DNA from: Candidatus Roizmanbacteria bacterium
Lineage (GTDB): Bacteria; Patescibacteriota; Microgenomatia; UBA1406; GWC2-37-13
Direction of reading: 5' to 3'
DNA: 64,000 nt
Assembly (NCBI GenBank): GCA_012798265.1
Contig: JAAZNM010000004.1
Span: 62,001-126,000 of the forward strand
Below the pieces are notes generated by a model, which was not told the DNA's origin, did not search any database, and saw only the letters and a program-made list of their open reading frames with translations. Each line of letters starts with the position of its first letter. Position 1 is the first letter of the stretch. Below, piece by piece: positions 352 through 28,176 of this stretch. The position numbers were made by a program, and so were the translations under genes.

Positions 352-690
352 TTAGAGGTGGGGAAGTGTGATTTCCCAGCCGCCAGAGGTACGTTTAAAC
401 AATCCTAAAATATCAACTCCGATTACCTCAAACACGACAATAACCACAACCACGACCAGTATTCCAATGACGGCATTGGTGATCTTGGTTTGAGCCTTAA
501 GAAGTTTGTCTTTTTCTCCGCCTGAGGCAATCCAATCCCAGGCTCCCCATAGACCGTAAATAAGCACTGACATAAAAGCGACGATCATGAACAGTTTGAT
601 ACCGGTGCCGGCCAGCGTTCCGAAAGCCGTCTGCGGATCGCTAGGGATAGAACTTACCGGAGGACTGATTGAACCAAATATTTGATCCAT
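352..690 (-). CDS. Small two-TM protein, VirB2/TrbC pilin-like (T4SS pilin-like family)
   Basis: A 112-residue protein with two hydrophobic helices and a short charged loop between them (GGEKDKLLKAQTKITNAVIG), followed by a very hydrophobic Val/Ile helix. This layout, with the K-A-Q-x3-T-x4-G signature before the second helix, is that of CPR pilin-like proteins related to VirB2/TrbC. I chose ATG 690 (MDQIFGS) over the upstream ATG 717 because 717 would overlap the end of the preceding gene. No classical signal peptide is visible; the N-terminal 30 residues are polar and Ser/Pro-rich. It forms a pair with the next upstream gene, 4 bp away. The role as a membrane subunit of a secretion or pilus-like structure is inferred from family resemblance. 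Confidence 0.7.
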   Translation of the reverse strand: MDQIFGSISPPVSSIPSDPQTAFGTLAGTGIKLFMIVAFMSVLIYGLWGAWDWIASGGEKDKLLKAQTKITNAVIGILVVVVVIVVFEVIGVDILGLFKRTSGGWEITLPHL

Positions 691-694
691 ATGA

Positions 695-997
695 TTATTG
701 TAATATTTGCACGCCAATTATGTAACCGATTACCCTGACTAGCACAAAACTAACAAGAACAATTACAAGGCCGATTATGGCTGATGTGAAAACCGCCTGG
801 GCCTTTTTCATGTTTTCCGCGCTGTCGCCGGCCGTAATCCACTGATAAGCCCCCAGAAGGAGCATAGCCAGGAAGATGACCGCTGCTCCGGTCATAAGAA
901 GCGGGAGAATTACATTAAGAATGGTGGCGAAGTTGGCTATTTTTGCCGGACCGAAGGTTGATTCATTTATGACAACTTCCGCATGGACTACATTCAT
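695..997 (-). CDS. Small two-TM protein, VirB2/TrbC pilin-like
   Basis: A 100-residue protein. An N-terminal segment ending near FGPAKIANFAT precedes a first membrane helix (around residues 28-50), a loop with GDSAENMKKAQAVFTSAIIG, and a second helix (around 72-95). The loop shares the K-A-Q-x3-T-x4-G pattern with the neighbouring gene and with two proteins at 18.2 and 26.6 kb, so all four are probably paralogues. A TATAAT hexamer on the minus strand at 1009-1014 lies 11 nt before the ATG, so this is probably the first gene of a two-gene transcript. The function is inferred: a pilin-like or channel-forming small subunit of a type IV-secretion-related machine. Confidence 0.7.
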   Translation of the reverse strand: MNVVHAEVVINESTFGPAKIANFATILNVILPLLMTGAAVIFLAMLLLGAYQWITAGDSAENMKKAQAVFTSAIIGLVIVLVSFVLVRVIGYIIGVQILQ

Positions 998-13759: not shown

Positions 13760-16700
13760 ATGGCCAGCCCTGATACCAATGAATCAAAACCGGTGGTTGA
13801 CGAAGTCGTCGCCAAAGCCCGTGAAGAGGTAAAAAAGGAAGTGGATCAAGCCAAAGCCGCCCATAAAGAGGACGACCTCGGTAGGAGGATTATCGAGGAG
13901 GTGCAACAGGTGCTTCTTCACGCTCAAGAAGCGGTTGATTCTGAGCAGAAAGGCAACTTCAATCAAAAAAGGATTGAGGCGGAAAAAGTGCAGAGAGCGC
14001 TTGCCCGGGCTGCCGAAGCCGCCAAAGAAGGCATCAAAGTATCAAGTAGCGATCAGGGGCAGGATCTGCTGGTCAGACTGGCCGGAAAAAATCTGACCCC
14101 TTCGGTATCAAGCGCGATCGAAGTGACGTTGGCCGATTTTATCCTGGGAGACAAACCGATAACTTTTTCGTCTTCCGGAGCTTCAAAAACTGAGTTTGAG
14201 ACGGCTATGGGTAATCTCCAGGCGCTTAATTACGTAGCCGGCAATATGATGGTCGATTTTCTGAAACAGGCATCAAGGAAAGGAGTTATTCCCCTTAAAG
14301 AGGAGGAGATCGAACAAAAACTATCGCCTGAAATCCAGGAGAAAGAGGATCCGCGGATGCGCCGGCGCAACATCCCCAGTAAAGAGGACAGGCAAGGGTT
14401 TGATGATCTTTACAAAAAAATAAACAGCGCCTTGCAGGACAATCTGGCTAACGCTCCTGACGACAAAAAGCTTACCGGTGATGAGAGGACTAAACTGAAG
14501 ATGTTTCTTTTTGGCGACAGTGATATTCCGGCATCAGAGTTGGAGCGGATATTCGGCAAACTCGACCTGGTCAAACACGGTTTGAAAAGGGAAGATCTTG
14601 CCCACTATTCCCGGTTTTATGAAAAAAACTTCCGCCAGATCGATGTTGAAGAGATCATCGGTATGATGACTAACCATACTTTGATTAGGCATCTGGAAGA
14701 CGCTACCCGGGTCTTTAACATCAATTACCTGAGGGGAGAGGGTAAGGAAGGTCAGGATATCCTGTACTTCAAAAAAAACGACCAGGGGGTAGAGGAGGTA
14801 GTCCTTGACCGGAAGCGCTTCAAGAAGCTTATCAACAATTACTATTATCTTGCCCTGAAAGAGGTCCATGCCAACTCTTCCAAGATGTTCAACGAGATCT
14901 TCGATCCTTATCAGCATGGTTATTACTTCGGTGGGTTGAAGGGTTTGGTCGGCAATCTTTGTGACGGTTTGCGGGATCAATTTTTTCAGGGAGATCCCGA
15001 GATGAAGAGGTTTCTTGATGATGTCCGCGGCCGTTATCAGGCGAGTATCCTGACCTATGCCGAGACCTTCCATAACCTGCCTCTTTATGCCCGCGACGCC
15101 AGCAGTTTTGAAAAATGGCCGCAGTTTTTGGGTTATCTTTTTCCGTCGGAACTGGCCGAAGTCTTTGACCCCGATGATCCCTTAATGGAGATAGCCCGCC
15201 ACGAGATTCCGATGTATCTGCGAAGAAGAGTAGTGTTAAACGGTAACAAGATGCCCTCCGACCTTTTCTCCGGCAACTACGATAAGGAAGGGGCCCAGTA
15301 TGGTTTTAAAGACAGGAACAAGATGATAGAGATACTAAAAGCCAGGGTAAACGAACTTGGCCTTAAAGTTGAGGATTGGGAGTTTGAGCGGGCGATGACA
15401 TATTCGCTAGGTATAGGGATTGCCACTTTAAATGACATTGAAGTGCTTTGTACGGCCGATCCCAATACGGGTGATTTTAGGAGTCTTCATCCTTTGATGC
15501 CGGTTTTGTCGGCTAAACACAACTGGGGTCTGGGACGGGGTTATCCTGACTCAAGTTATATCCCCGATCTACTCCAGATGGACGTAACCCTTTTTCCTGA
15601 GGAGAGAGGGTTTTTGAGCCGGCTTTTAAAAAAGAAAAGCTGGGTGCCAAAAGCCTTTCACGAAAAGGTAATCGGCAATGTCCAAAAATACGGAGACAAG
15701 GTCTTTGATGCCATGCTGGGCCATGAGGGCCAGTATCAGGAGCTTCTTAGCATGATAAACATTGGTACCAGCCTTAACAGCCGTGCAGGTTGGCGGGTAT
15801 TGCCGATCAGAGAAAAATTAAGAGGTTATGCCGCGAAAGATGGTGGATATGGATTGAATATGAAATGGGGAGATGCCCGTAAAACCTGGGGCAAAAAAGA
15901 ATGGCGGCAGTATGTTGAGCTGGCTATGAAGTTATATGGCGGTTCGGCAATCTGGTGGGTAAATCAAGCGGATAGGCTTGATCCGGAGATGAGACGATTC
16001 TTAACGAAGCATTTGCACGGAGATTATGACGAAATGGAAAAAGAGTACCATGAATATAATAAGGGCGGAAAATCGCTAAAAAAGGAATTTGAAATTACCG
16101 TTAATGGTAAACAAAGGAAGATAAACTTTCTTGAAGCAAAAAATATTCGCAACTATCAATTTAGAGCCGAGGCTTTTTATATGTATATGAAGCGTAACCC
16201 CGGTGACTTTGTTCTGCTTCTTAGTCAAATGGCGCCGGAATTATTAAATGCAAATACTAATTATTTTTTAAGTGAAAGTGAATTTAAAAAAAATATCCCA
16301 GGAGGAAAATCAAAAATAGATATTGAAAAAGATTTAGCTATTAGAGCGATGCTTGAAGCCCGTTGGGGTCCGCAGATGGAGACTTTGGGAAAGATAAGAA
16401 GCTGGATATTTAACGATTTTAAAAACAGCAGGGAAGCTATAATAAATGAGGGGAAAAAAGAAGGAGATAAAGATTGGGTAAAATTAGGCAAAGACAAACT
16501 TATAGAGTATTTAGTTGAGCAAAGCGGTAATGCTTATGAAAAAGTGTTGAAAGATAAGGCACGCCATGTGGATAAAGATGGTAAACCTCTGCCTGACACT
16601 ACCCGTTCATACGTGGAAAGAGGCGATTTTGACGATCCTGAATTGGCCAGGTTGATCTTTGACGAAAATGGGTTGATGGGCATCCTAAAAGAAGAGGATT

Positions 16701-17434
16701 TCGGAGGGTTTGATGAAAAAGGCGATTTCAGTTACGGGGACCAGAAGTTTTTCTATATGCTGGGTCAGGTATGGACTCTTAAGCAGGGCGATATCAATCC
16801 GTTTACCGCCGACCTAAACCACTTTGCCCTTTATGAACAGTTGGGAAAACCTGGTGAAGATGTGGTTAAGCGTTATCTTGGTGATACTCAGGCGGTGAGG
16901 AAGATGATCGAAGGCGTGGCCCAGCTTGACCAAAAACTGCTTCATGCGGCCAACTCCGGCGACCTTAAGGAAATATATGAGATCCACAAGTCGGTATACG
17001 GCACTTTAAGGGCGATTATCAGCGAAGAGTACGCTTTCCGGGCCAACTACATAATGGCCTCAATCGTCGCCAAGTTTTTTTATGAACATAGCTTAACCCG
17101 GGTTTCCGGTATGCCCTCAATAATCAGTTATCTGTTTAAGTCGGGATTAGGTCATAATTCGGCTCTGTCAAAAATAGTCACCCATAATCGTCACGCCAAA
17201 ACCATGGATGAAAATGGCGTTAGGGATTATTTTATGAAACTGGCTTATGACATGCATGTCATTGCTCCTGAAGGAGTATGGTCTAGGGAACAACTAGAGT
17301 TGGCGTACGACGCCAAAACCGATACGTTCCTTTTTGGCGACGCCATTCCGAACTTCACCTACTTCCTTTTGTTTTACCTGTGGTGGATCTATATGAAAAG
17401 GGCCATGGAAGAGGCAGAAGGAAAGAAAAAATAG
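13760..17434 (+). CDS. Large 1224-residue protein, unknown family, first gene of the secretion-like block
   Basis: No family is recognised. The N-terminal 110 residues are Ala/Glu/Lys-rich and probably coiled coil (EEVKKEVDQAKAAHKEDDLG; RRIIEEVQQVLLHAQEAVDS). The rest looks largely helical and charged, with no signal peptide and no nucleotide-binding motif. One hydrophobic stretch lies at the very end (NFTYFLLFYLWWIYMKRAME), suggesting a tail anchor or membrane contact with the body in the cytoplasm. A segment around 15.8-16.6 kb is noticeably more AT-rich than its surroundings. It precedes the pilin-like secreted protein by 32 bp on the same strand. A scaffold or cytoplasmic part of the same machine is a guess from position. 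Confidence 0.8.
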   Translation: MASPDTNESKPVVDEVVAKAREEVKKEVDQAKAAHKEDDLGRRIIEEVQQVLLHAQEAVDSEQKGNFNQKRIEAEKVQRALARAAEAAKEGIKVSSSDQGQDLLVRLAGKNLTPSVSSAIEVTLADFILGDKPITFSSSGASKTEFETAMGNLQALNYVAGNMMVDFLKQASRKGVIPLKEEEIEQKLSPEIQEKEDPRMRRRNIPSKEDRQGFDDLYKKINSALQDNLANAPDDKKLTGDERTKLKMFLFGDSDIPASELERIFGKLDLVKHGLKREDLAHYSRFYEKNFRQIDVEEIIGMMTNHTLIRHLEDATRVFNINYLRGEGKEGQDILYFKKNDQGVEEVVLDRKRFKKLINNYYYLALKEVHANSSKMFNEIFDPYQHGYYFGGLKGLVGNLCDGLRDQFFQGDPEMKRFLDDVRGRYQASILTYAETFHNLPLYARDASSFEKWPQFLGYLFPSELAEVFDPDDPLMEIARHEIPMYLRRRVVLNGNKMPSDLFSGNYDKEGAQYGFKDRNKMIEILKARVNELGLKVEDWEFERAMTYSLGIGIATLNDIEVLCTADPNTGDFRSLHPLMPVLSAKHNWGLGRGYPDSSYIPDLLQMDVTLFPEERGFLSRLLKKKSWVPKAFHEKVIGNVQKYGDKVFDAMLGHEGQYQELLSMINIGTSLNSRAGWRVLPIREKLRGYAAKDGGYGLNMKWGDARKTWGKKEWRQYVELAMKLYGGSAIWWVNQADRLDPEMRRFLTKHLHGDYDEMEKEYHEYNKGGKSLKKEFEITVNGKQRKINFLEAKNIRNYQFRAEAFYMYMKRNPGDFVLLLSQMAPELLNANTNYFLSESEFKKNIPGGKSKIDIEKDLAIRAMLEARWGPQMETLGKIRSWIFNDFKNSREAIINEGKKEGDKDWVKLGKDKLIEYLVEQSGNAYEKVLKDKARHVDKDGKPLPDTTRSYVERGDFDDPELARLIFDENGLMGILKEEDFGGFDEKGDFSYGDQKFFYMLGQVWTLKQGDINPFTADLNHFALYEQLGKPGEDVVKRYLGDTQAVRKMIEGVAQLDQKLLHAANSGDLKEIYEIHKSVYGTLRAIISEEYAFRANYIMASIVAKFFYEHSLTRVSGMPSIISYLFKSGLGHNSALSKIVTHNRHAKTMDENGVRDYFMKLAYDMHVIAPEGVWSREQLELAYDAKTDTFLFGDAIPNFTYFLLFYLWWIYMKRAMEEAEGKKK

Positions 17435-17466
17435 ACTATTTTTTGGTTTTCTTGTATAAATAGAAT

Positions 17467-18279
17467 ATGAGAAAAATTCTTCAAATAATAATATTGATTG
17501 TTGGCGTAATTTTAATTACTTCAAAAGTCAGGGCCGACGTTCCTTCGCCAACACCAACCTCAAGTATACCGATCCCAACAATAGTAGTTCCAAGTGCGGT
17601 AATTTCCTCAGCTCCAATGTTGCCTGGAGTCAATTGTGGAGATACTTATGCGACTTCTCCAAACAATCGTTGTTGTGTACATCAACCAATTGTTTTTAGC
17701 ATACCAAGGCCTAACGTTATAGGGATAGATCAGATAGTAGATGTAGTTAACCCTTTGGTTGATTCGATATTGAGGCCATTATTCAGTCCCTTTAATAACT
17801 ATGCCCAAAGTATTGTCCAGCCATGCGTCAGTGGGTTTCCAAGTACTCCTGGAGATCTGACCAATCCAAGTTGTGTATGCAATGCCTCTCCTCCTCAGGC
17901 ACCTTTGACGCAACTGTTGTATTTATGCAAAAACGTCAGTCCAAAAGAACAAGGACAGTGTGAGAGCTGTCTTAAAGGAACGGGCAGTTCGGGTACGGTT
18001 GGAGTTTGGACAGGTATAGGTTGCATATATACCGATTTTGGTACTTTTATCAAAGAAAAAGTCTTTGGTTTTGGGGTTGGCATGGCCGGAATAGTAGCCT
18101 TACTTTGCATAATCTACGCGGCTTTCAGCATGCAGACTTCAAGGGGCAATGCCGAAAAGATAAAAAAAGCTCAGGAGATGCTGACTTCATGCATAATGGG
18201 ACTGATGTTGGTTATTTTCTCGATATTTATACTGAGATTGATTGGGGTGAATATTCTGAAGATTCCCGGTTTTAGCTGA
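17467..18279 (+). CDS. Secreted Cys-rich protein with C-terminal VirB2-like pilin module
   Basis: A 270-residue protein. It has a signal peptide (about 1-23, ending VRA before DVPSPTPTSS), a Pro/Ser/Thr linker (24-50), and an ectodomain (about 55-190) with ten Cys (57, 69, 70, 120, 136, 138, 154, 165, 168, 186), probably disulphide-bonded. The C-terminal part is a two-helix pilin-like module (about 200-262) with GNAEKIKKAQEMLTSCIMG. That last part matches the three short pilin-like proteins in this window. The combination suggests a pilin-like subunit displaying a folded extracellular domain. TATAAA at 17455-17460 ends 6 nt before the ATG. It converges on the VirB6-like gene with only 2 bp between stops. 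Confidence 0.75.
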   Translation: MRKILQIIILIVGVILITSKVRADVPSPTPTSSIPIPTIVVPSAVISSAPMLPGVNCGDTYATSPNNRCCVHQPIVFSIPRPNVIGIDQIVDVVNPLVDSILRPLFSPFNNYAQSIVQPCVSGFPSTPGDLTNPSCVCNASPPQAPLTQLLYLCKNVSPKEQGQCESCLKGTGSSGTVGVWTGIGCIYTDFGTFIKEKVFGFGVGMAGIVALLCIIYAAFSMQTSRGNAEKIKKAQEMLTSCIMGLMLVIFSIFILRLIGVNILKIPGFS

Positions 18280-18281
18280 TC

Positions 18282-19991
18282 TTAAAACTGGCCCTCTTTC
18301 TTCAATTGGGCTAGTTTCTTAGCCATAAGCTCTCCTTGTTGAGGCGGCATCAATCCTTTATTCGCTAGAGTCTCATAAATTTTGCTGCCCATGATTTTTC
18401 CACCAATTATCGGCATTTGGGTCAAAGAGGTAAATGTGCCAAAGCCGGTTTGGGCACCGGTCCAAGCCGCTCCGACTCCGCCAAAGAAGGTGCCAAGACC
18501 AAGATTAATCGGCATCGGTTTAATTCCTAACATCTCTCTAACCATTTTTACAAGATCGGGTATCATCAAGATAATACCCATGCCGATGAACATTGAAAAA
18601 GTGTTGGCGCTGAGGCTGCCTAAAAATGGAGGAGCCCAGAACGTATACACGGGATTGTTGGTGGTATTAGCTATGATGTATCCTGCGATAAGCAAAATTA
18701 CGACAACCGGAAAGGTCAAAAGGTCGCCCATCAAATTTTTCAGCCAATAGGAAAAAGCATTTTTTCCAGGGATAGCTTCAAATACTATAAAAATAGGAGC
18801 AAATATAATCATAAGGACTATTCTTATATAAGTGGTAAACAACAGGAAAAATATTCTAAAAAGGACAAATATGATGGTAAGAAGAACTAAAAGTCCAATC
18901 ACCAATTGAGGAGCAAGAAAAAAACCAAAAGCCAAGGCAAGTATTATTATGATAAAACCAAGAACAATGTTAAGGGCCCCACTTGGTATTTTTCCCAGGG
19001 AAAAAGTAAAAGCATCTATATTGTCAAAAATTTCCGTAACTTTACCTAAAGTCGAGATATTACTTAACTGGAAAAAAAGCCAACCACCCAATATCAACCC
19101 AACAATTCCTCTTATTAAGATATTTACGAATAAAGGCATTATCTTCAAAAGCTCGTTGCCTAATCTGAAAAGAAAATCAAAGCTGGACAATATAGGTATA
19201 CCACCTTTGTTGGGAATCATAAATTCACCCAAAGATCCAAGATCGCCGCTAATAAGTTTTTGTTGGAAATCGGCAGGATTATAAAAAGAACCGTTATTGC
19301 TCATAATGTAAATAGCTATTCCGATCATAAAGTACATTATGTCGATAAGGAATCCGGCGATGGCAAAAGAAAAAGTGATTAAAAGAAGAGCTATCACTAT
19401 TCTTGGCAAACTGTTTTCAACCGAAATTACCGTCTGGGGATTAATCTTCATCCGGAACATGATCATAAAACCGATACTGATCATAATCAGTACTAGAATA
19501 AGATAGGTGATGTCCCGAAAAACCTTCCAAAGATTCATAAACGGTTTAACCGCAGCGAAACCAATTCCTTCAGCCGCATATGTTTTGGGGATAAAACCGC
19601 TGTTTTGCAGTCCCGAGTATACCCAGTATGCGCCAGAAGCCGGAGGATTTATATATGGAAGCACGATCATGTTAGACATCATACCCAATATGCTTGTTTT
19701 ATAGTTTTTTTCGCCGTCGTCAGGATTATCGGTACAAGCTTCTCCAAGCGTTCCGCATACGACTATTCTATATATGGCTAAACTGATTTTTCCTTCCTTG
19801 GTGGAGGCAAGTTTTTTGTCGCTTAATACTTTATATATATTTTCCCGGTTTTTTTGTATGGGGTCGTAGCTTATTTTTGGCTTGTCCTTGTTTATAAAAT
19901 AAAACAATAGGCTTACTACGGAGACATATACGGCTACCACCAGAAATAATTTTCTTAAAAGTAATAGGGTTTTCTTAAAAAAAGAAGCCAT
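18282..19991 (-). CDS. Polytopic membrane protein, VirB6/TrbL-like
   Basis: A 569-residue protein with an N-terminal signal-anchor helix (about 10-32), an extracytoplasmic segment (about 33-150) containing one Cys pair (CGTLGEAC), then about eight to ten long hydrophobic helices (about 155-495) and a cytoplasmic Gly-rich tail ending in basic helices (GELMAKKLAQLKKEGQF). The helix pattern, including FRMKINPQTVISVENSLPRI after the second helix, is like CPR polytopic proteins annotated as VirB6/TrbL-type channel subunits of type IV secretion. This family assignment is by layout, not by a strict motif. It is the last gene of a probable three-gene minus-strand transcript behind the two anchored proteins. 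Confidence 0.6.
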   Translation of the reverse strand: MASFFKKTLLLLRKLFLVVAVYVSVVSLLFYFINKDKPKISYDPIQKNRENIYKVLSDKKLASTKEGKISLAIYRIVVCGTLGEACTDNPDDGEKNYKTSILGMMSNMIVLPYINPPASGAYWVYSGLQNSGFIPKTYAAEGIGFAAVKPFMNLWKVFRDITYLILVLIMISIGFMIMFRMKINPQTVISVENSLPRIVIALLLITFSFAIAGFLIDIMYFMIGIAIYIMSNNGSFYNPADFQQKLISGDLGSLGEFMIPNKGGIPILSSFDFLFRLGNELLKIMPLFVNILIRGIVGLILGGWLFFQLSNISTLGKVTEIFDNIDAFTFSLGKIPSGALNIVLGFIIIILALAFGFFLAPQLVIGLLVLLTIIFVLFRIFFLLFTTYIRIVLMIIFAPIFIVFEAIPGKNAFSYWLKNLMGDLLTFPVVVILLIAGYIIANTTNNPVYTFWAPPFLGSLSANTFSMFIGMGIILMIPDLVKMVREMLGIKPMPINLGLGTFFGGVGAAWTGAQTGFGTFTSLTQMPIIGGKIMGSKIYETLANKGLMPPQQGELMAKKLAQLKKEGQF

Positions 19992-20033
19992 ATATTGATT
20001 TAATAAAAAAAATCACGGAAAATCAATCGGCAT

Positions 20034-20474
20034 TTATTTGAGTATGAATCTGCCCATGGAAAGACTTGAATAATTTGCTTTTAACCACTGTTCAAATTTG
20101 GTTTGGTTATCTGCTTTTGGAGAGGCTATATTAACGATAAATTTGTCTTGGCTATAATCGAAATTGATAGTGAATCCGTCGTTTTCCAACGGCAGCTTGT
20201 TTTTGAGGTTCAGTTCCTGTTTGGTTTCGTTAAGGAGCTCGGGAGCGATCGTCTCTTCTTTTACTCCGGTAAAGCCGGTCGGCATAACTTCGGTTGTCGT
20301 AACAGAGGCGGCCTGACTGACGGAATTGACTGAGGTTGGGCTGGGTAGGGGAGTGATACTGTTTGACGTTGAGGTATCTTTGTGATTCCTGAGGATCGAT
20401 AATAATACTATTAATACGATAACTATAATTAAACCGAAAATTGCCGCATATATCTTCAAGTTATTTTTTGACAT
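20034..20474 (-). CDS. Membrane-anchored exoprotein sharing a module with the adjacent C39 protein
   Basis: A 146-residue protein with one N-terminal membrane helix (about 8-28), a Ser/Thr/Pro linker (32-65), and a small external domain. Residues 99-134 (DGFTINFDYSQDKFIVNIAS, then ADNQTKFEQWLKAN) align with residues 73-106 of the C39 protein encoded 3 bp upstream: FT-x(9)-DK(F/Y)-(I/V)(V/I) and AD-x(4,5)-W(L/I)K-x-N. The module is not one I can name. The gene is probably cotranscribed with the C39 and VirB6-like genes. Confidence 0.65.
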   Translation of the reverse strand: MSKNNLKIYAAIFGLIIVIVLIVLLSILRNHKDTSTSNSITPLPSPTSVNSVSQAASVTTTEVMPTGFTGVKEETIAPELLNETKQELNLKNKLPLENDGFTINFDYSQDKFIVNIASPKADNQTKFEQWLKANYSSLSMGRFILK

Positions 20475-20477
20475 TTT

Positions 20478-21542
20478 TTATGGCTTTTTAACTCCTAAAA
20501 TTATACGGTATTTGGGAAAAGGATATTTACTGTTTTCGTTAAAGGGAGGCGCTTGAAAGCGGCCGTAAAAAGGGTCGTAAGCCCAGACGTTGCCGCCGCT
20601 GTCTATATCGGTGATCCAGAAATAATGGCCGCAACCGCCGTCGCAGTAATTGGCCAAAGCAAACAGAGTCCAACCTCCGTTTAGGTATCCTTTCATGTCC
20701 GACGCCACTTCGTTGACGGTTGCCAAACCGTAGTATTTGTATCCGGTCGTGGTTAACCCGAGGCTGTCAAGGACTATCTTGGCCGAACTGTAATATGACC
20801 CACCGCATCCGATATACTGCCCTTTTTGTTTATAATAATCGACCATAGTCTGCGGATTGGTATTTTTGTCTTTATAGGAGGCGACGATCATGGCGATACT
20901 GGTCGGTCCGCATCCGGCCCGGCAGACCGTACAACCGTCAGGTAACGGATAGTTGTCGTAGCTTCCGCCGCATTGAGAGTAATAAACCAAGTTGCCGGCC
21001 GGAACCGGAACTGAAGAAGGCAAAGAAGTAGGGGTAATCTTATAAGTAGGTTTTGGAGTAAGAGTGATGTCGGCTGTTTTTTTAACGATCACTAATAGGT
21101 CGGTCAATAAATTGGCTATGCCGTTACTGACAACACCTTTATTTTTATCGGCGCTTCCGGAGCTTGTTTTGGAAGTACTGTTCTCGATATAAATATCAGG
21201 GTGTTGATCTCTGTCGGGAAGTTGATTCTTTTTTATCCAGTCGTCAATTTTTTGGTCAGCCTGGTCGTTTTTTTTGTCGATAACGTATTTATCTATTTCC
21301 GGGTGATATTCAGCCGTAAAGTAGTCGTCACTATAATAATACTTATTAGTATTGGTATAGGTACTGTCGTTTGACTCCTTATCATTATTAGAAGACTGAT
21401 TGTTCTGATACCCATATATGGGGGTAGGTGTGACCGAAGCCGTCTGTTTTTTCTCCTTTCGCTGAAGAAAAAAACTTAAGCCGATAATTATGATAAGGAG
21501 TATCAGCAAAACAAATCCTAAAATCGCGACGATTTTCTTCAT
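20478..21542 (-). CDS. Membrane-anchored C39-like (papain-fold) cysteine peptidase
   Basis: A 354-residue protein from ATG 21542 ([10 protein letters not shown]); the frame is open 7 codons earlier but overlaps the divergent gene's leader. One anchor helix (about 5-26), Ser/Asn/Thr linkers, the shared module (73-106), then a C39_2-type domain (about 183-354). Catalytic residues are visible: Cys211 in [13 protein letters not shown], His306 in [13 protein letters not shown] and Asp323 in AYDPFYG. Further Cys (191, 204, 207, 246, 300, 304) may form disulphides. It would act outside the membrane, cutting peptide or peptidoglycan cross-links; the substrate is unknown. It is divergent from the Clp ATPase gene, with 35 bp between starts. 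Confidence 0.78.
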
Positions 21543-21577
21543 TGACAAAAAACAAAAAATCAATAATAATAAAAAAT

Positions 21578-24500
21578 ATGGCCTTTTTTGATTTTATAAA
21601 AAAACCGACGGCAAATGCAAACGATCAATCGACTCCGGTTCCTCCGCAACCTGTACAGAGCTCTCCAAAGCCCTATTCAGGCATAGGTAATCCGCCTTCG
21701 GGTCAGGCATATTCCGGCATCGGCAGTCCGCCTTCTTCGACTGCGACTCAGCCTGTTGGGCCGACCGCGGTCCCACCAGCAAACCAGCCGCCGGTCAATC
21801 AGTTTTTGAGTAAACAGCAGCAGGTTAATAACATAAAAAACTTGATTAACGACCCGAAATTAGTCCATCCGAATACGGATAAACCGTCTCAAGATCCTAA
21901 AAAACCGTCACCGACGGATTTAAACAAAAGTCCAAGTCCAACCGGACCGGTCAAATCCGGATCTCCGGCGCCGGGCGCCACCGATAAAAAAAAGGAAGAT
22001 ATCGATCTGATGACTCATCTGACCCAAAGATCGAACAGGGTTTTTCTCTCGGCCCAAACCAAAGCCAAAGAACTGAAAACCCAGTTTATCGACAGCGAAC
22101 ATCTTCTTCATGGTTTGCTTTCTGATACTGAGATATACAATCTTTTAGTTGAGATGAAGATCCAGCCTCAAGTAGTTGAAGAGGAGCTGGCCAAGATTTA
22201 CAAAAGGGAGAATGTCCAGACTTTGCCCCAGCCTTCACCGAGGATCAAAAGAATCCTTGACAACTCATTGGTCATTGCCCGCAAACTTGGTTTTGAATTT
22301 ATTTCTCCTGAACATTTATTACTGTCTTTGTATGAAGAAGGTGAAGGAGCCGGAGCCAGGATTCTTTCCAAACTGGGGGCAAAAAAAGAAGAACTGAACA
22401 AAAAGATCGTCGGCAGGAAAGAAGGATTGGAAGCCGATCAGAAAGAAGCGGAAAAAAAGAAAAGTTCGCTGGAGGAGTTTACTATCGATCTGACGGCTAA
22501 GGCTTCCCAGGGATTGCTTGATCCGGTGGTTGAGCGTTCTGAGGTGATAGAGAGGGCGATACATATTTTATCCCGCCGAACCAAAAACAACCCGGCCCTG
22601 GTCGGAGAGGCCGGCGTCGGTAAAACCGCCATTATTGAAGGACTGGCCCAGAAAATAGTTTCCAAACAGGTACCGGAGCCGCTTTTGAACAAAAAAATCC
22701 TCCAACTGGATCTGATGAGTATTTTGGCCGGGGCTTCGCACAGGGGAGAGTTTGAAGAAAGGATGAAGAACCTGATCGAAGAGGTCAAAAGTAGCCAAGG
22801 GCAGATAATTCTTTTTATTGACGAGATTCACAATATCGTCGGTGCCGGGTCATCGGGCGAGGGATCGCTTGATGCCTCAAACTTCCTTAAACCGGCCTTG
22901 GCCCGCGGCGAAATTCAGCTTATCGGAGCGACTACTTTAACCGAATACCGGAAATACATCGAAAAAGATCCGGCTTTGGAAAGAAGATTCCAACCGGTAA
23001 TCGTGCCGGAACCGACAGAAGAGCAGGCAATAAAAATGCTCAAAGCCATAAAAGACAAATACGAAGCCTTCCATAGGGTTAAGATACCGGAGGCGGCCGT
23101 TGACGGTGCGGTTGTCCTGTCAAAACGCTATATCGGTGACCGTTTCCTGCCCGATAAGGCGGTTGATCTTATCGATGAAGCGTCGTCAGCCGTAAGGTTG
23201 CCGATGATTTCACTCCCCGAGGAAATCCGCTCCGTCGAAACGAGGATGGCCGAGTTGAACCAAGAACTAAAAGAGACTGAGAAAACCGGTGACAAAGTCA
23301 GGGGCCGGATATTAAGGTCGAAGATCGATGATACCCAGTCGGTCCTTAAGGAAAAACAGGAAGAATACAATCTGAAAAAATCGCAGACGACGACGGAGGT
23401 AACGGTCGATATCATAAAAGATATCATCTCCCGCTGGACGGGTATTCCGGTCTCAAAAATTACCGCAAGCGAGGTGGAAAGGTTGGCTAATCTGGAGAAG
23501 ATCATGCACGAACGTCTGATAGACCAGGAGGCGGCGGTTACCGCCGTTGCCCAGGCGGTCAGGCGCGGTAAAGCCGGTTTGAAGTCGACCCAAAGGCCGA
23601 TCGGCAGTTTCGTTTTCCTGGGTCCGACCGGCGTCGGTAAAACCGAGCTGGCCAAAACCTTAGCCGATATCCTTTTCGGCCAGGAAGAAGCGATGGTAAG
23701 GTTCGATATGACCGAATACATGGAAAAACATGAAGTGGCCAAATTATTGGGAGCACCGCCCGGATATGTCGGTTATGAAGAGGGTGGTAAACTTACCGAG
23801 GCTGTCAGGCGGCGTCCGTATTCGGTCGTACTTTTTGACGAGGTGGAAAAAGCCCATCCGGATATCTTCAATATCCTTCTTCAGATACTTGACGACGGGC
23901 GTCTGACCGATAACAAAGGCAAGGTCATCTCTTTCAAGAATACGGTAGTTATCTGTACTTCGAATATCGGCACCAAAGTAATCCAGGACGAACTGCTGAA
24001 AAACGGCAAGACCGAAGTCGAAGAGCCGCCGGTGTTATCAACCTATGCCTTTTCTCCAAGAGGCAGGGAGATACTGACGATCGGCAACAAGTATTTCGAA
24101 CAGGAAAAAAAGAGCGAGTCGGGTGAAGGCGAGTGGAAAAGTCAGATGCTTCTTGATTATTTCGCCGGACAGCAGGTCGATCCAAAAGTAGAGTTTCCGG
24201 TTTACGGTTTCGATACCCAAGCGATATCTCCCCAGGGCGAAGAGATAATCACCAAAAACGATAAAGTCTATCTGAGGAAGTCGACCACGGCCAAAACATG
24301 GAACAGCAGTAATCTTATCGAATACTTCAAGGAAGGAGTGGTTATCAACGCTCTTCCTGATGCACCGGATGAACAGCTGCCGACAGTCAAACTTAAGACG
24401 CATGCTTTTACCCCTGACGAGAACGAGGTAGTCACCTACAAAGACCGTTATTGGATGCGTAAACAGGGGACCAAGGATTGGCAAACATGTCTTTTGAAAG

Positions 24501-25387
24501 ACTATTTTGTTGATCAGTCTTTGGATAAGGGCAGTCTACCGACTACCCACTGGGATGTCCATACTTTTTCCCCGACAGGGACAGAGGTCGTTATTCTCGA
24601 GAATAACGTTTATATGAGAAAAACCGGAGAAAAAGCCTGGAAATCCGTTACCTTAAAAGAGTACTTCGGCAAAGACTTCCCGTTGGAAAAAGAAATAGAG
24701 GAAAAGAAAAAAGTCGAGGATGAGGTCGACGGCAAAAAATATCAGGGCATAAAAGGCAAGGTTATGGAGGAGTTGCGCAAGTTTTTCCGCCCGGAACTTA
24801 TCAACCGGTTTGACGAAGTAATTATTTTCGAGCCGTTGAAGTTTGTCCATATGATGGCCATAGTCAAACTTCAGTTAAAAGGCGTCGGTAAACTGCTTGA
24901 AGATCAGAGTATAGGATTTGCCTATACGGATTCCGCAGTCAAGGAGATAGTCAGGGCCGGTTTTGATCCTATCTATGGAGCCAGGCCGTTAAGACGGGCG
25001 ATACAAAAACTGGTCGAAAACCCGATATCGACGTTGATTATCGAACAAAAAGTCAAACCGGCCGACCAGTTGACGGTAGATTTTGATGGTGACAGTTTCA
25101 TATTCAACGTCGAGAAAACCGAACTGGTGCAGGTGGATAAAGCCAATCCGGTAAAAAAATTCAAATGCCAGACTTGCGGAGCCGAATTTGAAACCGAGAT
25201 CGTCAAAAACTCGACCTTGATCTGTCCTAAGTGTGCCTCGAAAAAACTTCAAGAGTTGGTCGCCAAACCAGAAGAAAAAAAGCCAGAGATCCAAACCCAA
25301 GTTCCTGTTAAGACTAACGGGGCTGCTAAAAAAACGTTACCGACAGAATCTCAAACAGGAAGTCCACAAGTCTCGGCAGCCGCTTAA
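21578..25387 (+). CDS. Clp/Hsp100 AAA+ unfoldase (ClpC/ClpB-like) with four-repeat insertion and C-terminal zinc ribbon
   Basis: A 1269-residue protein from ATG 21578. Order: Pro/Ser-rich N-terminus (1-140); Clp-N repeats (about 145-280); AAA-1 with GEAGVGKT (343-350) and LFIDE (412-416); short middle region (about 545-605); AAA-2 with GPTGVGKT (682-689), LFDE (752-755) and sensor-1 TSN (794-796). An insertion of about 245 residues (811-1055) follows, with four repeats ending at about 862, 917, 977 and 1030. Then [11 protein letters not shown] (arginine finger), D2-small with GARPLRR (1134-1140), and a CxxC...CxxC ribbon (1197, 1200, 1216, 1219). In ClpA/ClpC the ClpP-docking loop lies where the insertion is. 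It unfolds proteins with ATP in the cytosol; partners are unknown. Confidence 0.88.
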
Positions 25388-25402
25388 TTTATATATTAAC
25401 TT

Positions 25403-25720
25403 ATGTTAAATTACACCCCGCTAGATTTGGAAAAGCTCAAAAAAAAAGATAACGGAGTCAATACGATGTTGCTTCTGATGGCGACATTGACCGCCGGCAT
25501 ATTGGCGGTAATGCTTTTTGTCCTTATCCAAAAAAAAACCAGTCAAGAGCAACTGCCAAGCACGACCTATACCGATACGAGTATCGAGTCGCCTACGCCT
25601 TCATTGACCGGTGAGGAGATGATGCCGACGGCAAGCGTCAGTCCGGTGCTTGATATAAGTCCCGCAGTTTCATCCCCATCGGGCCAATCGGCATCGTCGA
25701 CTCCAGAGCTAACAAAATGA
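25403..25720 (+). CDS. Small single-TM protein with Ser/Thr/Pro tail
   Basis: A 105-residue protein: charged N-terminus (1-20), one helix (about 22-43, LLLMATLTAGILAVMLFVLI), then a Ser/Thr/Pro-rich external tail of about 60 residues with no recognised motif. It starts 15 bp after the Clp ATPase stop and its own stop overlaps the next ATG (ATGA, 25717-25720), so it belongs to the same transcript. TATATT at 25392-25397 lies 5 nt before the ATG. A spacer or anchor role in the complex is possible but not shown. Confidence 0.65.
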   Translation: MLNYTPLDLEKLKKKDNGVNTMLLLMATLTAGILAVMLFVLIQKKTSQEQLPSTTYTDTSIESPTPSLTGEEMMPTASVSPVLDISPAVSSPSGQSASSTPELTK

Positions 25721-26409
25721 GTAATAATATCCCCATCGCCCTTATTTTTTTTCTGGTTCAGGTTCTGCTGATTTTTTTCGTTTCCCGGTTGACTATCAAT
25801 AACATCTTTTATTTTCTCCGGCGCTTCACCAAAAACGAAAAATTGATTTTTAGCTTGGTTTCGTTGTTTTTTTTGCCCGGGACATTACTCCATGAGATTG
25901 CCCATTTTTTTGGGGCGATGGTAATGATGCTTAAGGTCCATCAGGTGACGGTTTTTCCGACATGGCATGATGATTACATAAAACTAGGAAGTGTCGTCTA
26001 CGAAAAAAAAGACTTCCTGCGGGGAGTTATCGTCGGTATCTTTCCTTTCGTCTTCGGTACCGGTTTTTTTTGGCTGGTGGCCAAATTCAAACTGTTTCCC
26101 CAACCCAATCTTCTATTGAATGTCCTATGGATTTATCTTTTTTTCAATATTTCCTCGACGATGTTTTCCTCCAAACAGGATCTGATTGACATAGTTTACA
26201 TCCTGCCGGTATTGGTGATTGTCGCCGGGTTCGTATACATATTCAATATCGATGTCGTTGGAATATTGAACAGCCCAAAAATAAGGGACAATTTGCTAGA
26301 CTTTACTAGAGAAGTGAATTATTATCTGACGATGTCTTTGGGGATCAATTTAGGGTTGTTAGTCATATTTAAAAGTTTTTCGCTTTTGTTCAACAAACAT
26401 GGAAAATAG
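25717..26409 (+). CDS. Polytopic membrane protein with HEIAH (metalloprotease-like) motif
   Basis: A 230-residue protein with about five or six membrane helices. FFLPGTLLHEIAHFFGAMVM places an HExxH zinc-binding motif (about residues 60-64) inside or beside a helix, as in M50/site-2 proteases. A later segment FNISSTMFSSKQDLIDI could play the part of the second M50 motif (N-x(2)-P-x(n)-D), although the Pro and Gly of the canonical site are missing. The gene is coupled to the one before (ATGA) and overlaps the pilin-like gene after it by 11 bp. An intramembrane protease is the best guess; a non-catalytic relative is equally possible. Confidence 0.55.
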   Translation: MSNNIPIALIFFLVQVLLIFFVSRLTINNIFYFLRRFTKNEKLIFSLVSLFFLPGTLLHEIAHFFGAMVMMLKVHQVTVFPTWHDDYIKLGSVVYEKKDFLRGVIVGIFPFVFGTGFFWLVAKFKLFPQPNLLLNVLWIYLFFNISSTMFSSKQDLIDIVYILPVLVIVAGFVYIFNIDVVGILNSPKIRDNLLDFTREVNYYLTMSLGINLGLLVIFKSFSLLFNKHGK

Positions 26410-26719
26410 ATATTTGGCTCAGACGGTCAATATGAACGGTCAACAGATCACCGGACCCTTGCAGGGAATCAATAATTTGGGGGATATAGTCAACAAAATG
26501 ACGATGTTTTTGCTGCCTTTGGCGGGAATTATTCTTCTTTTTGTTCTTATCTGGGGCGGTTACGACTATATGATGTCCCAGGGTAAACCGGATAAGATAA
26601 AATCGGCCCAGGCCAAAATCACTACCGGTTTGATCGGTTTCATCCTGCTCATTTTGGCTTTTTTCCTGACCAAGTTGTTGACGACGATTTTCGGGCTGAG
26701 CGGTTGGAGTCCTTTTTAA
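26399..26719 (+). CDS. Small two-TM protein, VirB2/TrbC pilin-like
   Basis: A 106-residue protein: polar N-terminus (1-28), helix (about 33-55, FLLPLAGIILLFVLIWGGYD), loop QGKPDKIKSAQAKITTGLIG, second helix (about 75-97), short tail. It has the S/K-A-Q-x3-T-x4-G signature of the other three pilin-like proteins here. The start overlaps the end of the HEIAH gene by 11 bp. It is the last gene of the plus-strand operon that begins with the Clp ATPase or at 25403. Confidence 0.7.
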   Translation: MENRYLAQTVNMNGQQITGPLQGINNLGDIVNKMTMFLLPLAGIILLFVLIWGGYDYMMSQGKPDKIKSAQAKITTGLIGFILLILAFFLTKLLTTIFGLSGWSPF

Positions 26720-26841: not shown

Positions 26842-28176
26842 ATGTTTAAATCAAACAAAGAACCTCCAATAATACTTTCGATCGGCGGCAGTTTGATCGT
26901 TCCTGATGGGGGAGTTGATACGGACTTTCTTTCCAAATTAAATAAATTCATTAGGCAACAGGTGGCAAAAGGTAAAAGGTTTTTCTTAGTTGCTGGTGGT
27001 GGTAAAACAGCCAGACGTTATCGAGATGCTGGTAAGGCGGTTATCGGTAATTTAACCAGCGAAGATCTTGATTGGTTAGGTATACACTCCACCCGTCTGA
27101 ATGCCCATCTTTTAAGGACAATATTTCAAGATATTGCCCATCCGCGAATAATCGACGATTACAGCCATAAGGTAAGGCAATGGCGGGAGCCAATCATGGT
27201 TGGTTCGGGATGGAAACCGGGTTGGTCGACCGACTATGATGCGGTTATCCTTGCCCGTGACTATAACGCCAACGTGATTGTCAATTTGTCCAACGTTGAC
27301 TGGGTTTATGATAAGGATCCGCGTAAGTATCCGGATGCCAAAATCATCAAAAAACTGACATGGGAGGAGATGGAAAAACTGGTTGGCACCAAGTGGAGTC
27401 CTGGGATAAATGCTCCTTTTGATCCGGTAGCCGCCCAGCTTGCCAAAAAAATCTGTCTTACTGTAATTGTCGCCAATGGTCTTGATTTTAAAAATATGGA
27501 GAAGATAGTCGAAGGCGATTCTTTCAAAGGTACGGTGATAATGCCTTTTAACATAGATGCCGGTTTTTATGACAGGGAGTATTATACCGGCAAAAAAGGC
27601 GAGTACCGTTTCGGCTATGTCGAGTCTGTTTTCGGAAAAGTTCTCCACAACCTTATCAATTTTTATCGGGCTTTCTTAATAAAAATTTTCTTGAATCCGA
27701 AAAACTGTTTGGATGTCGGTTGCGGTACCGGTAAGCTTATCCGCTGGCTGAAATTCTTTGGGATCGAGTCTTACGGAATAGAGATTTCAAAACAGGCGCT
27801 CGACCTGGCCGATCAGTCGATCAAACCTTTTTTGAAATCGGGCGATATTATCAAAATCCCTTATCCTGATGATCATTTTGATCTGGTTCTGACATATGAC
27901 GTCATGGAACATCTGGAAAGGTCAAAAATAAAAAAAGCGGTTGAAGAGACGATCAGGGTTTCCCGTAGACATGTGCTCCATAAGATATATACTTTGGAAA
28001 ACCAATGGATAAACCTTACCCATAAACGCGATTTTTCCCATGTCTCCGTTTTCAGCAAAAAATACTGGCAAAAACTTTTCGCATCTTTTGAAAATGTTTC
28101 CATCCTCAGAGGTTCTTTTTTCAAACTGTCTTCTTTTTTTGAGACAATATTCTTATTAAGGAAAAAACCGTCATAA
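26842..28176 (+). CDS. Fusion: archaeal-type UMP kinase + class I SAM methyltransferase
   Basis: A 444-residue protein. Residues 1-236 are an amino-acid-kinase-fold UMP kinase of the archaeal PyrH type: LSIGGSLIVPDGGVDTDFLS, FLVAGGGKTARRYRDAG, MVGSGWKPGWSTDYDAVILA, VIVNLSNVDWVYDKDPRKYP and a C-terminal KGTVI. It phosphorylates UMP to UDP. Residues about 255-444 are a Rossmann methyltransferase with motif I CLDVGCGTGKLIRW (about 290), ESYGIEI and DLVLTYDVMEHLE. The two halves share one frame with no stop, so this is a true fusion unless the assembly joined two genes. The methyl acceptor is unknown. It is followed 4 bp later by recF. Confidence 0.85.
   Translation: MFKSNKEPPIILSIGGSLIVPDGGVDTDFLSKLNKFIRQQVAKGKRFFLVAGGGKTARRYRDAGKAVIGNLTSEDLDWLGIHSTRLNAHLLRTIFQDIAHPRIIDDYSHKVRQWREPIMVGSGWKPGWSTDYDAVILARDYNANVIVNLSNVDWVYDKDPRKYPDAKIIKKLTWEEMEKLVGTKWSPGINAPFDPVAAQLAKKICLTVIVANGLDFKNMEKIVEGDSFKGTVIMPFNIDAGFYDREYYTGKKGEYRFGYVESVFGKVLHNLINFYRAFLIKIFLNPKNCLDVGCGTGKLIRWLKFFGIESYGIEISKQALDLADQSIKPFLKSGDIIKIPYPDDHFDLVLTYDVMEHLERSKIKKAVEETIRVSRRHVLHKIYTLENQWINLTHKRDFSHVSVFSKKYWQKLFASFENVSILRGSFFKLSSFFETIFLLRKKPS

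What the first reader, a model, noticed from the sequence alone, without database searches (positions are those of the whole stretch)
13760..26719. Candidate undescribed secretion-like system with peptidase and unfoldase parts
Seen: within 13 kb, a 1224-residue protein, a Cys-rich exoprotein with pilin-like tail, a VirB6/TrbL-like channel candidate, two anchored proteins sharing a module (one a C39-type peptidase), a Clp-type ATPase, a Ser/Thr/Pro single-TM protein, a HEIAH membrane protein and a VirB2-like pilin. Spacing is tight (2-43 bp), with overlaps in the plus-strand part and a short divergent promoter region between the C39 and Clp genes. Inference: these form one envelope-spanning machine that unfolds, moves and perhaps trims proteins. 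No VirB4/VirD4-type ATPase is in the window, so the Clp protein could be its motor.
Basis: partly seen in the sequence, partly recalled or inferred. Interest (0 to 1): 0.78.

Follow-up and report, generated by a model that had tools for sequence, protein, structure and literature searches.

The report
Split type IV secretion gene cluster
This stretch carries the channel, pilus and cell-wall-cutting half of a type IV secretion machine in a tiny, probably host-dependent bacterium, together with a large fast-changing protein and a Clp-type protein unfolder that keep turning up beside secretion genes and have no described place in such machines.

Summary
The gene list is right and conserved. It is not an undescribed machine but one half of the patescibacterial type IV secretion system (T4SS), split in this lineage (Roizmanbacteria relatives, Microgenomatia). 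VB6 (18282-19991) has a VirB6/DotA fold: the top four VIA rows, Z 8.7-10.5, next 5.8. Its profile hits 201 of 233 class genomes, where print calls VirB6 scarce. Outside the family VB6 lies within 38 kb of VirB4 in 54 of 76 genomes with both printed; inside it, in 0 of 19. The genome has VirB4, PrgI and a coupling-type ATPase on another contig, so Clp need not replace a missing motor. Two parts are new to me in T4SS. (1) A large, fast-evolving helical protein encoded tail-to-tail with VB6; its C-terminal 200 residues match counterparts in other families. (2) A ClpC-like unfoldase with a 240-residue, four-repeat insert where ClpC docks ClpP; the genome has no ClpP. In another order this Clp stands beside PrgI-VirB4 in 12 of 12 loci examined. 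Clp as accessory T4SS unfoldase is inferred, not shown; three genomes have it away from T4SS genes.

The parts
13760..17434 (+). 1224-aa protein ('P1224'): no signal peptide seen, almost wholly helical, C-terminal hydrophobic helix with charged tail; fast-evolving large partner encoded tail-to-tail with VirB6
   Evidence: in 22 of 83 genomes of the order by one-sequence search; model pLDDT 80.8, pTM 0.71; C-terminal 200 residues match large proteins of other families in profile-profile comparison
17467..18279 (+). Secreted Cys-rich protein (12 Cys) with pilin-like two-helix tail; head-bearing pilin, tip adhesin candidate
   Evidence: PF18895 19.3 bits (below cut-off), family profile links it to pilins
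18282..19991 (-). VirB6/DotA-fold inner-membrane channel protein ('VB6')
   Evidence: profile in 201 of 233 class genomes; VIA Z 10.5 to DotA, 8.7-9.0 to TrwI/VirB6, next row 5.8
20034..20474 (-). Single-TM protein with small outside module shared with the C39 protein
20478..21539 (-). Single-TM protein with the module and a C39-like peptidase domain; probable cell-wall hydrolase (VirB1 analogue)
   Evidence: C39_2 27.8 bits; same slot holds CHAP (4) or M15 (1) in relatives
21578..25387 (+). ClpC-type double-ring unfoldase with P/S-rich N-terminal extension and C-terminal zinc-ribbon-like stretch; no ClpP in the genome
   Evidence: best PDB match B. subtilis ClpC, E 6e-227
23972..24784 (+). 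Stretch from sensor 1 to the Arg-finger region of the second ATPase ring, holding four ~40-aa repeats; replaces ClpC residues 666-674
   Evidence: 34 of 233 class genomes; 1 weak match outside the class among 286 phylum genomes
25403..25720 (+). 105-aa single-TM Ser/Thr/Pro-rich protein
   Evidence: open frame, no family, no relative recognised by sequence in the loci scanned
25717..26409 (+). Multi-helix membrane protein with invariant PGT..HExxH; candidate membrane metalloprotease, overlapping the pilin gene
   Evidence: 86 of 233 class genomes
26399..26719 (+). VirB2-like pilin (PF18895)
   Evidence: 33.0 bits, cut-off 26.6
695..997 (-). Further PF18895-like pilin outside the given range (26.0 bits, just below cut-off)
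352..717 (-). Second pilin-like protein overlapping it (no Pfam hit; profile match only)

Best explanation
The cluster is the VirB6-pilin half of a type IV secretion system of the patescibacterial kind, separated in this family from its ATPase half (PrgI, VirB4, coupling-type ATPase on contig C2). Inferred working: VB6 lines the inner-membrane channel; the small pilin and the Cys-rich head-bearing pilin form a surface fibre or tip; the C39-like protein (CHAP or M15 in relatives) opens the cell wall; VirB4 and the coupling ATPase drive assembly and transport. P1224 is a large helical protein anchored in the membrane by its C-terminal helix, working on the cytoplasmic side with VB6 as a substrate receptor or scaffold. 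The Clp protein is a ClpC-derived unfoldase that has given up ClpP and carries a repeat domain at the pore exit; it most likely unfolds or disaggregates clients (substrates, pilins or P1224) for the T4SS. Shown here by computation: VirB6 fold, gene linkage, presence of VirB4/PrgI/coupling ATPase, absence of ClpP, swap of wall-enzyme domains. Inferred: P1224 topology, Clp clients, HExxH role, cargo.
For: VB6 fold: the first five Foldseek rows are VirB6 or DotA (E 0.3-0.8 only), VIA Z 8.7-10.5 against 5.8 for the next row. VB6 in 201 of 233, VirB4 family in 217 of 233 class genomes. Outside the family 54 of 76 genomes with both printed have them on one contig, all within 38 kb; in the family 0 of 19 within 40 kb, five on one contig at 64-318 kb. 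A large convergent gene follows VB6 in 18 of 19 loci outside the family and in 62 of 80 loci; 15 of the 18 misses have fewer than three further ORFs. P1224 C-terminus matches other families' large proteins: probability 98% E 1e-14; E 6e-7; E 2e-7. Own genome: PrgI 1e-7, VirB4 7e-30, coupling-type 1e-7. Clp beside PrgI-VirB4 in 12 of 12 loci of family f147. No ClpP in the own genome while 12 of 14 controls ring.
Against: Foldseek E for VirB6 is not significant by itself, and helical models give middling Z easily (note). Conserved order around recF, yidC, jag and valS could reflect conservation of the origin region rather than function. The repeat-Clp lies away from T4SS genes in 3 genomes of families f133 and f143 and its insert is absent from 199 of 233 class genomes. 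P1224 has no recognised relative or fold. In several groups (f9b, f12, L098, L103-L105, L107) the large convergent protein shows no detectable similarity to P1224. No VirB8 was sought.
Confidence: 0.72

Rival explanations
1. P1224 is the main T4SS cargo: a large effector delivered into the host cell, with the conserved C-terminal domain as its export signal, unfolded by the neighbouring Clp.
For: It evolves faster than VB6 (15-45% against 25-50% identity to the window protein over 18 relatives each); the last 200 residues are its best conserved part; lengths of 1123-1362 aa are kept in the labelled family members; charged tail after a hydrophobic stretch.
Against: A hydrophobic C-terminal helix in most members suggests membrane anchoring; exactly one large gene, tail-to-tail with VB6, looks like a machine part; no enzyme or toxin domain found.
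Confidence: 0.28
2. Clp, HExxH protein and perhaps P1224 are housekeeping or stress genes that sit here only because the chromosome around the origin is conserved.
For: recF, an amino-acid-kinase gene, jag, yidC and valS flank the cluster in many family loci; repeat-Clp is next to ribosomal or isoprenoid genes in families f143 and f133.
Against: The large gene-VB6 pair is kept outside this region and near VirB4; the Clp is beside PrgI-VirB4 in another order and next to a pilin gene in families f2 and f3; the genome has another Clp ATPase.
Confidence: 0.2
3. One reading: a separate undescribed envelope machine driven by Clp instead of VirB4.
For: No VirB4 in the window; tight gene cluster.
Against: VirB4, PrgI and a coupling-type ATPase are in the genome; VB6, Clp and pilins are neighbours of VirB4 in relatives.
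Confidence: 0.04
4. The C39 protein matures a secreted peptide or pilin rather than cutting peptidoglycan.
For: C39 peptidases are known from bacteriocin export (recalled).
Against: No ABC transporter domain in the protein; the slot is taken by CHAP or M15 wall enzymes in relatives.
Confidence: 0.15

Closest known systems
T4SS of Patescibacteria, FATA-like (Quinonero-Coronel 2025, PMC12102498: abstract, passages and section 14 read)
   Same: VirB4, PrgI, coupling ATPase, PF18895 pilins, often near the replication origin
   Different: Here split in two loci; VirB6 of a kind the published profiles rarely find in Microgenomatia; Clp not mentioned (0 occurrences), and no large tail-to-tail partner seen in the passages read
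VirB6/TrwI of R388 and DotA of Dot/Icm (structures 7o3v, 8rt9, 8rtd, 9ngy)
   Same: Helical membrane core, VIA Z 8.7-10.5 over residues 139-493
   Different: 9-12% identity; the N-terminal 140 residues with a conserved Cys pair are not covered
ClpC (3j3s) and ClpV/TssH of T6SS
   Same: Double AAA+ ring, ClpC-like; ClpV is a Clp of a secretion system that generally lacks the ClpP loop (PMC10149685, passages)
   Different: Window Clp carries four repeats in the loop position and is linked to T4SS genes, not T6SS
VirB1-type wall hydrolases of T4SS
   Same: Wall-enzyme gene beside the channel gene
   Different: C39-like domain in the window; CHAP or M15 in relatives

Membership tests
Type IV secretion system | VirB4 ATPase in the genome | tested here: met
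   PF19044 104.8 bits at C2:79028-79945; 7e-30 plus CagE_TrbE_VirB 2e-6
Type IV secretion system | VirB6 channel protein | tested here: met
   VB6 by fold: DotA Z 10.5, TrwI Z 8.7-9.0, next 5.8; Pfam gives one sub-threshold TrbL_5 hit in 63 members
Type IV secretion system | VirB3/PrgI | tested here: met
   PF12666 32.8 bits, cut-off 27, two genes before VirB4 on C2
Type IV secretion system | Coupling ATPase (VirD4) | tested here: met
   L009:1637-4018: TrwB_AAD_bind 31.6 bits, cut-off 20.5; TraG-D_C 24.3, cut-off 22
Type IV secretion system | VirB2-like pilin | tested here: met
   PF18895 33.0 bits in the window; six places in the genome
Type IV secretion system | Channel genes in one cluster with VirB4 | tested here: not met
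   In the own family 0 of 19 within 40 kb; met in 54 of 76 other class genomes
Type IV secretion system | VirB8, relaxase | not tested
   No search made
ClpC | Two AAA+ rings with ClpC-like N and M parts | tested here: met
   Best PDB match ClpC over residues 147-802 and 1046-1177
ClpC | ClpP-docking loop and a ClpP partner | tested here: not met
   ClpC 666-674 (loop place recalled) replaced by the insert; no PF00574 hit in own genome; 4 of 34 repeat-Clp genomes have a divergent PF00574 hit over the cut-off
Peptidase C39-like | C39_2 domain with Cys and His site | tested here: met
   27.8 bits, cut-off 24; GCGP and GHYFW present in the window protein and one or both motifs in most of the 24 relatives listed
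Peptidase C39-like | Cell-wall cutting activity | not testable with these tools
   Inferred from domain swap only

The most novel reading that the evidence does not exclude
A T4SS with its own unfoldase: a ClpC-derived ring whose ClpP-docking loop has become a repeat domain that docks on the T4SS (VirB4, VB6 or the giant helical partner), feeding unfolded proteins into the channel, with P1224-type proteins as the receptor or main cargo across Microgenomatia.
Probability: 0.3. Interest if true: 0.85.

Novelty: new variant of a known kind. Interest (0 to 1): 0.62.

Why it matters
T4SS genes are essential for host-dependent growth in the one patescibacterium tested (as told in PMC12102498). The class Microgenomatia seemed mostly to lack VirB6; VB6 fills that gap for most genomes. 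Two further parts, a giant helical partner and a ClpP-free Clp, give concrete candidates for how such cells handle cargo. T4SS cargo is held to pass at least partly unfolded (PMC12857230, passages), and a dedicated Clp unfoldase for it was not named in the papers searched.

Tried and rejected
Clp as motor in place of VirB4: rejected after the genome search. P1224 as a known family: Pfam on 32 members gave only single-member hits; PDB profile search gave one hit at E 0.72; Foldseek PDB and BFVD and VIA gave no informative row, best VIA Z 7.7 to a designed helical cage. The absence is not proof of a new fold: the model was searched whole, not by domain. P1224 profile in 286 phylum genomes: own, one other of the family, and one poor match with stops; the protein seems too diverged to find outside the order except through its place beside VB6. 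VB6 in PDB by sequence: none. Clp insert: PDB E 0.06 at best, Pfam weak hits in 1-2 of 22 members. DNA repeats in the insert: none worth naming; the repeats are visible only in protein. HEIAH as a fixed T4SS part: in families f12 and f13 it is mostly elsewhere by the printed rows.

Selection: loci L227-L234 were picked because HEIAH lay near VirB4 in the printed rows, so 8 of 8 there is biased. L277, L278, L280 and L281 came from the insert search without that choice and show the same (4 of 4). Of 13 f147 genomes with the insert, 10 were read with flank, all 10 beside PrgI; two are cut by contig ends (G471, G489) and one was not fetched beyond 1.5 kb (G506). G464 and G498 have a Clp without the full repeats, also beside PrgI; with the 10 they make the 12. 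The 76 and 19 genomes are only those with both genes in the printed rows, transcribed by hand. Of 21 non-own genomes with a P1224 hit, 20 were fetched (G027 left out).
Full report
What is there. All nine open frames are present at the stated places and spacing. Pfam gives a T4SS_pilin for the last gene (33.0 bits, cut-off 26.6), a sub-threshold pilin tail on the Cys-rich protein, a C39-like peptidase and a ClpB/ClpC-type ATPase, and nothing for the 1224-aa (P1224), 569-aa (VB6) and HExxH proteins. Relatives found by DNA scan are mostly named Candidatus Roizmanbacteria or other Microgenomatia; the genome itself is unnamed, 954 kb in 8 contigs, window = C4:62001-126000.

Conservation. A one-sequence search found P1224 in 22 of 83 genomes of the order. 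I fetched 20 of the 21 non-own loci. All 20 hold a P1224 relative; 18 also hold the Cys-rich pilin-tailed gene and a convergent VB6, and the other two contigs (L045, L051) end first. Around this core stand the wall-enzyme gene and its small partner, then Clp, HExxH and pilin genes, and housekeeping genes recF, jag, yidC and valS. Because the origin region is conserved as a whole, order inside the family alone proves little.

Outside the family. A profile of 19 VB6 proteins hits 201 of 233 genomes of the class; the VirB4 family hits 217 of 233. For genomes with both genes in the printed rows I compared places: outside the family 54 of 76 have them on one contig, all 3-38 kb apart; the other 22 have them on different contigs. 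In the own family none of 19 has them within 40 kb; five have them on one contig at 64-318 kb. In the own genome VirB4 lies at about C2:78263-80080, with PrgI and a separate short gene before it and a coupling-type ATPase about 1.6 kb after it; whichever way the contigs join, VB6 is at least about 85 kb away (from contig lengths). So the window holds one half of a split T4SS. Print says that VirB6 is scarce in Microgenomatia and suggests extreme divergence (PMC12102498, passages); VB6 is the likely answer.

VB6 fold. The model (63 sequences, pLDDT 83, pTM 0.68) has VirB6 or DotA chains as its five first Foldseek rows among 350,542 chains, at E 0.3-0.8. VIA gives DotA Z 10.5 (259 residues, rmsd 6.0), TrwI/VirB6 Z 8.7-9.0 (231-246 residues, rmsd 6.9-7.3), then 5.8. 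For helical models such Z can be chance, but the jump and the agreement of the rows with the gene neighbourhood make VirB6 the clear choice.

P1224. In 18 of 19 VB6 loci outside the family the next large gene is convergent, 613-1456 aa, with gaps of 1-109 bp (in the exception, L102, the next large gene is not convergent and two smaller minus-strand genes follow). In the 80 loci such a gene of over 550 aa is seen in 62; of 18 misses, 15 have fewer than three further ORFs, L166 shows two pieces, L135 holds P1224 farther on, and L172 shows none. Profile-profile comparison ties the C-terminal 160-210 residues of P1224 to large proteins of one f9 group (98%, E 1e-14), to L101 (E 6e-7) and L089 (E 2e-7), and weakly to f13 (E 1e-3); the other groups show no similarity. 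The last 200 residues are also the best conserved part within the family (31-33% mean pairwise identity against 15-30% elsewhere). The model (last 1200 residues, 32 sequences) is good for such a protein (pLDDT 80.8, pTM 0.71), almost all helix, and matches nothing informative. A hydrophobic C-terminal helix with a charged tail is seen in most members. I read it as a cytoplasmic, membrane-anchored partner of VB6; cargo is the main rival.

Wall enzyme. The C39-like protein has the expected Cys and His motifs (one search lists them for relatives). In loci where C39 is missing the slot holds CHAP (L139, L144, L147, L178) or M15 (L112) domains; five of ten proteins scanned had no hit. This points to cell-wall cutting, as VirB1 does elsewhere.

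Clp. Its best solved relative is B. subtilis ClpC (E 6e-227). Residues 147-802 and 1046-1177 align; ClpC residues 666-674 between them, the place I recall for the ClpP-docking loop, are replaced by about 240 residues. These hold four copies of a 40-residue unit (read by eye). PMC10149685 (abstract and passages) states that such loops dock ClpP, and that ClpB and the ClpIb type lack them and ClpV generally does. Of 30 Clp proteins of the Roizmanbacteria-type loci (window included), 17 of the 28 that could be measured span more than 250 residues there, the other 11 span 40-148, with charged linkers and no evident docking motif. The own genome has no ClpP hit and another Clp ATPase of 717 aa. The insert profile hits 34 of 233 class genomes and gives only one weak match outside the class in 286 phylum genomes. 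Four of the 34 have a divergent PF00574 hit over its cut-off.

Clp linkage. In the family, 11 of 13 genomes with the insert have it within 10 kb of VB6 by the printed rows; one more would if its single contig is circular (G069) and one has no VB6 match listed (G061). In family f147 of another order the Clp stands divergent beside PrgI-VirB4 in 12 of 12 loci examined (in L280 and L281 only PrgI is reached before the contig ends); eight were picked with knowledge of HEIAH-VirB4 nearness. In f2 (2 of 2) it precedes a pilin gene and in f3 (1 of 1) it is divergent from one. In f133 and f143 (3 of 3) it is among ribosomal or isoprenoid genes. Linkage is therefore strong but not universal: an accessory, not a core part.

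Print. Seven literature searches and three papers opened in part (PMC12102498, PMC12857230, PMC10149685) show no mention of a Clp or a giant VB6-linked protein in a patescibacterial T4SS; most subscription papers and all preprints are outside that library.

Noticed in passing
window 352-997 (-): Two further pilin-like genes, overlapping, about 13 kb before the cluster.
   Followed up: partly
window 26842-28176 (+): One frame fuses an amino-acid-kinase domain with a methyltransferase domain; kept beside recF in relatives.
   Followed up: no
L010 9846-10193 (contig C3): Another small pilin-like gene far from both T4SS loci; PF18895 has two hits on C3, so pilin genes are scattered over the genome.
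   Followed up: no
L008 7769-9481 (contig C2): Coiled-coil plus SpoIID wall enzyme next to a Cys-rich pilin-tailed gene 6-7 kb before PrgI-VirB4; may belong to the ATPase half.
   Followed up: no
L011 11860-17371 (contig C4): Apparent mevalonate-pathway gene run just before the window, read from the translations only.
   Followed up: no
window 21578-22015 (+): The Clp N-terminal extension carries YSGIGNPP-like motifs that recur in the Clp of family f147.
   Followed up: partly
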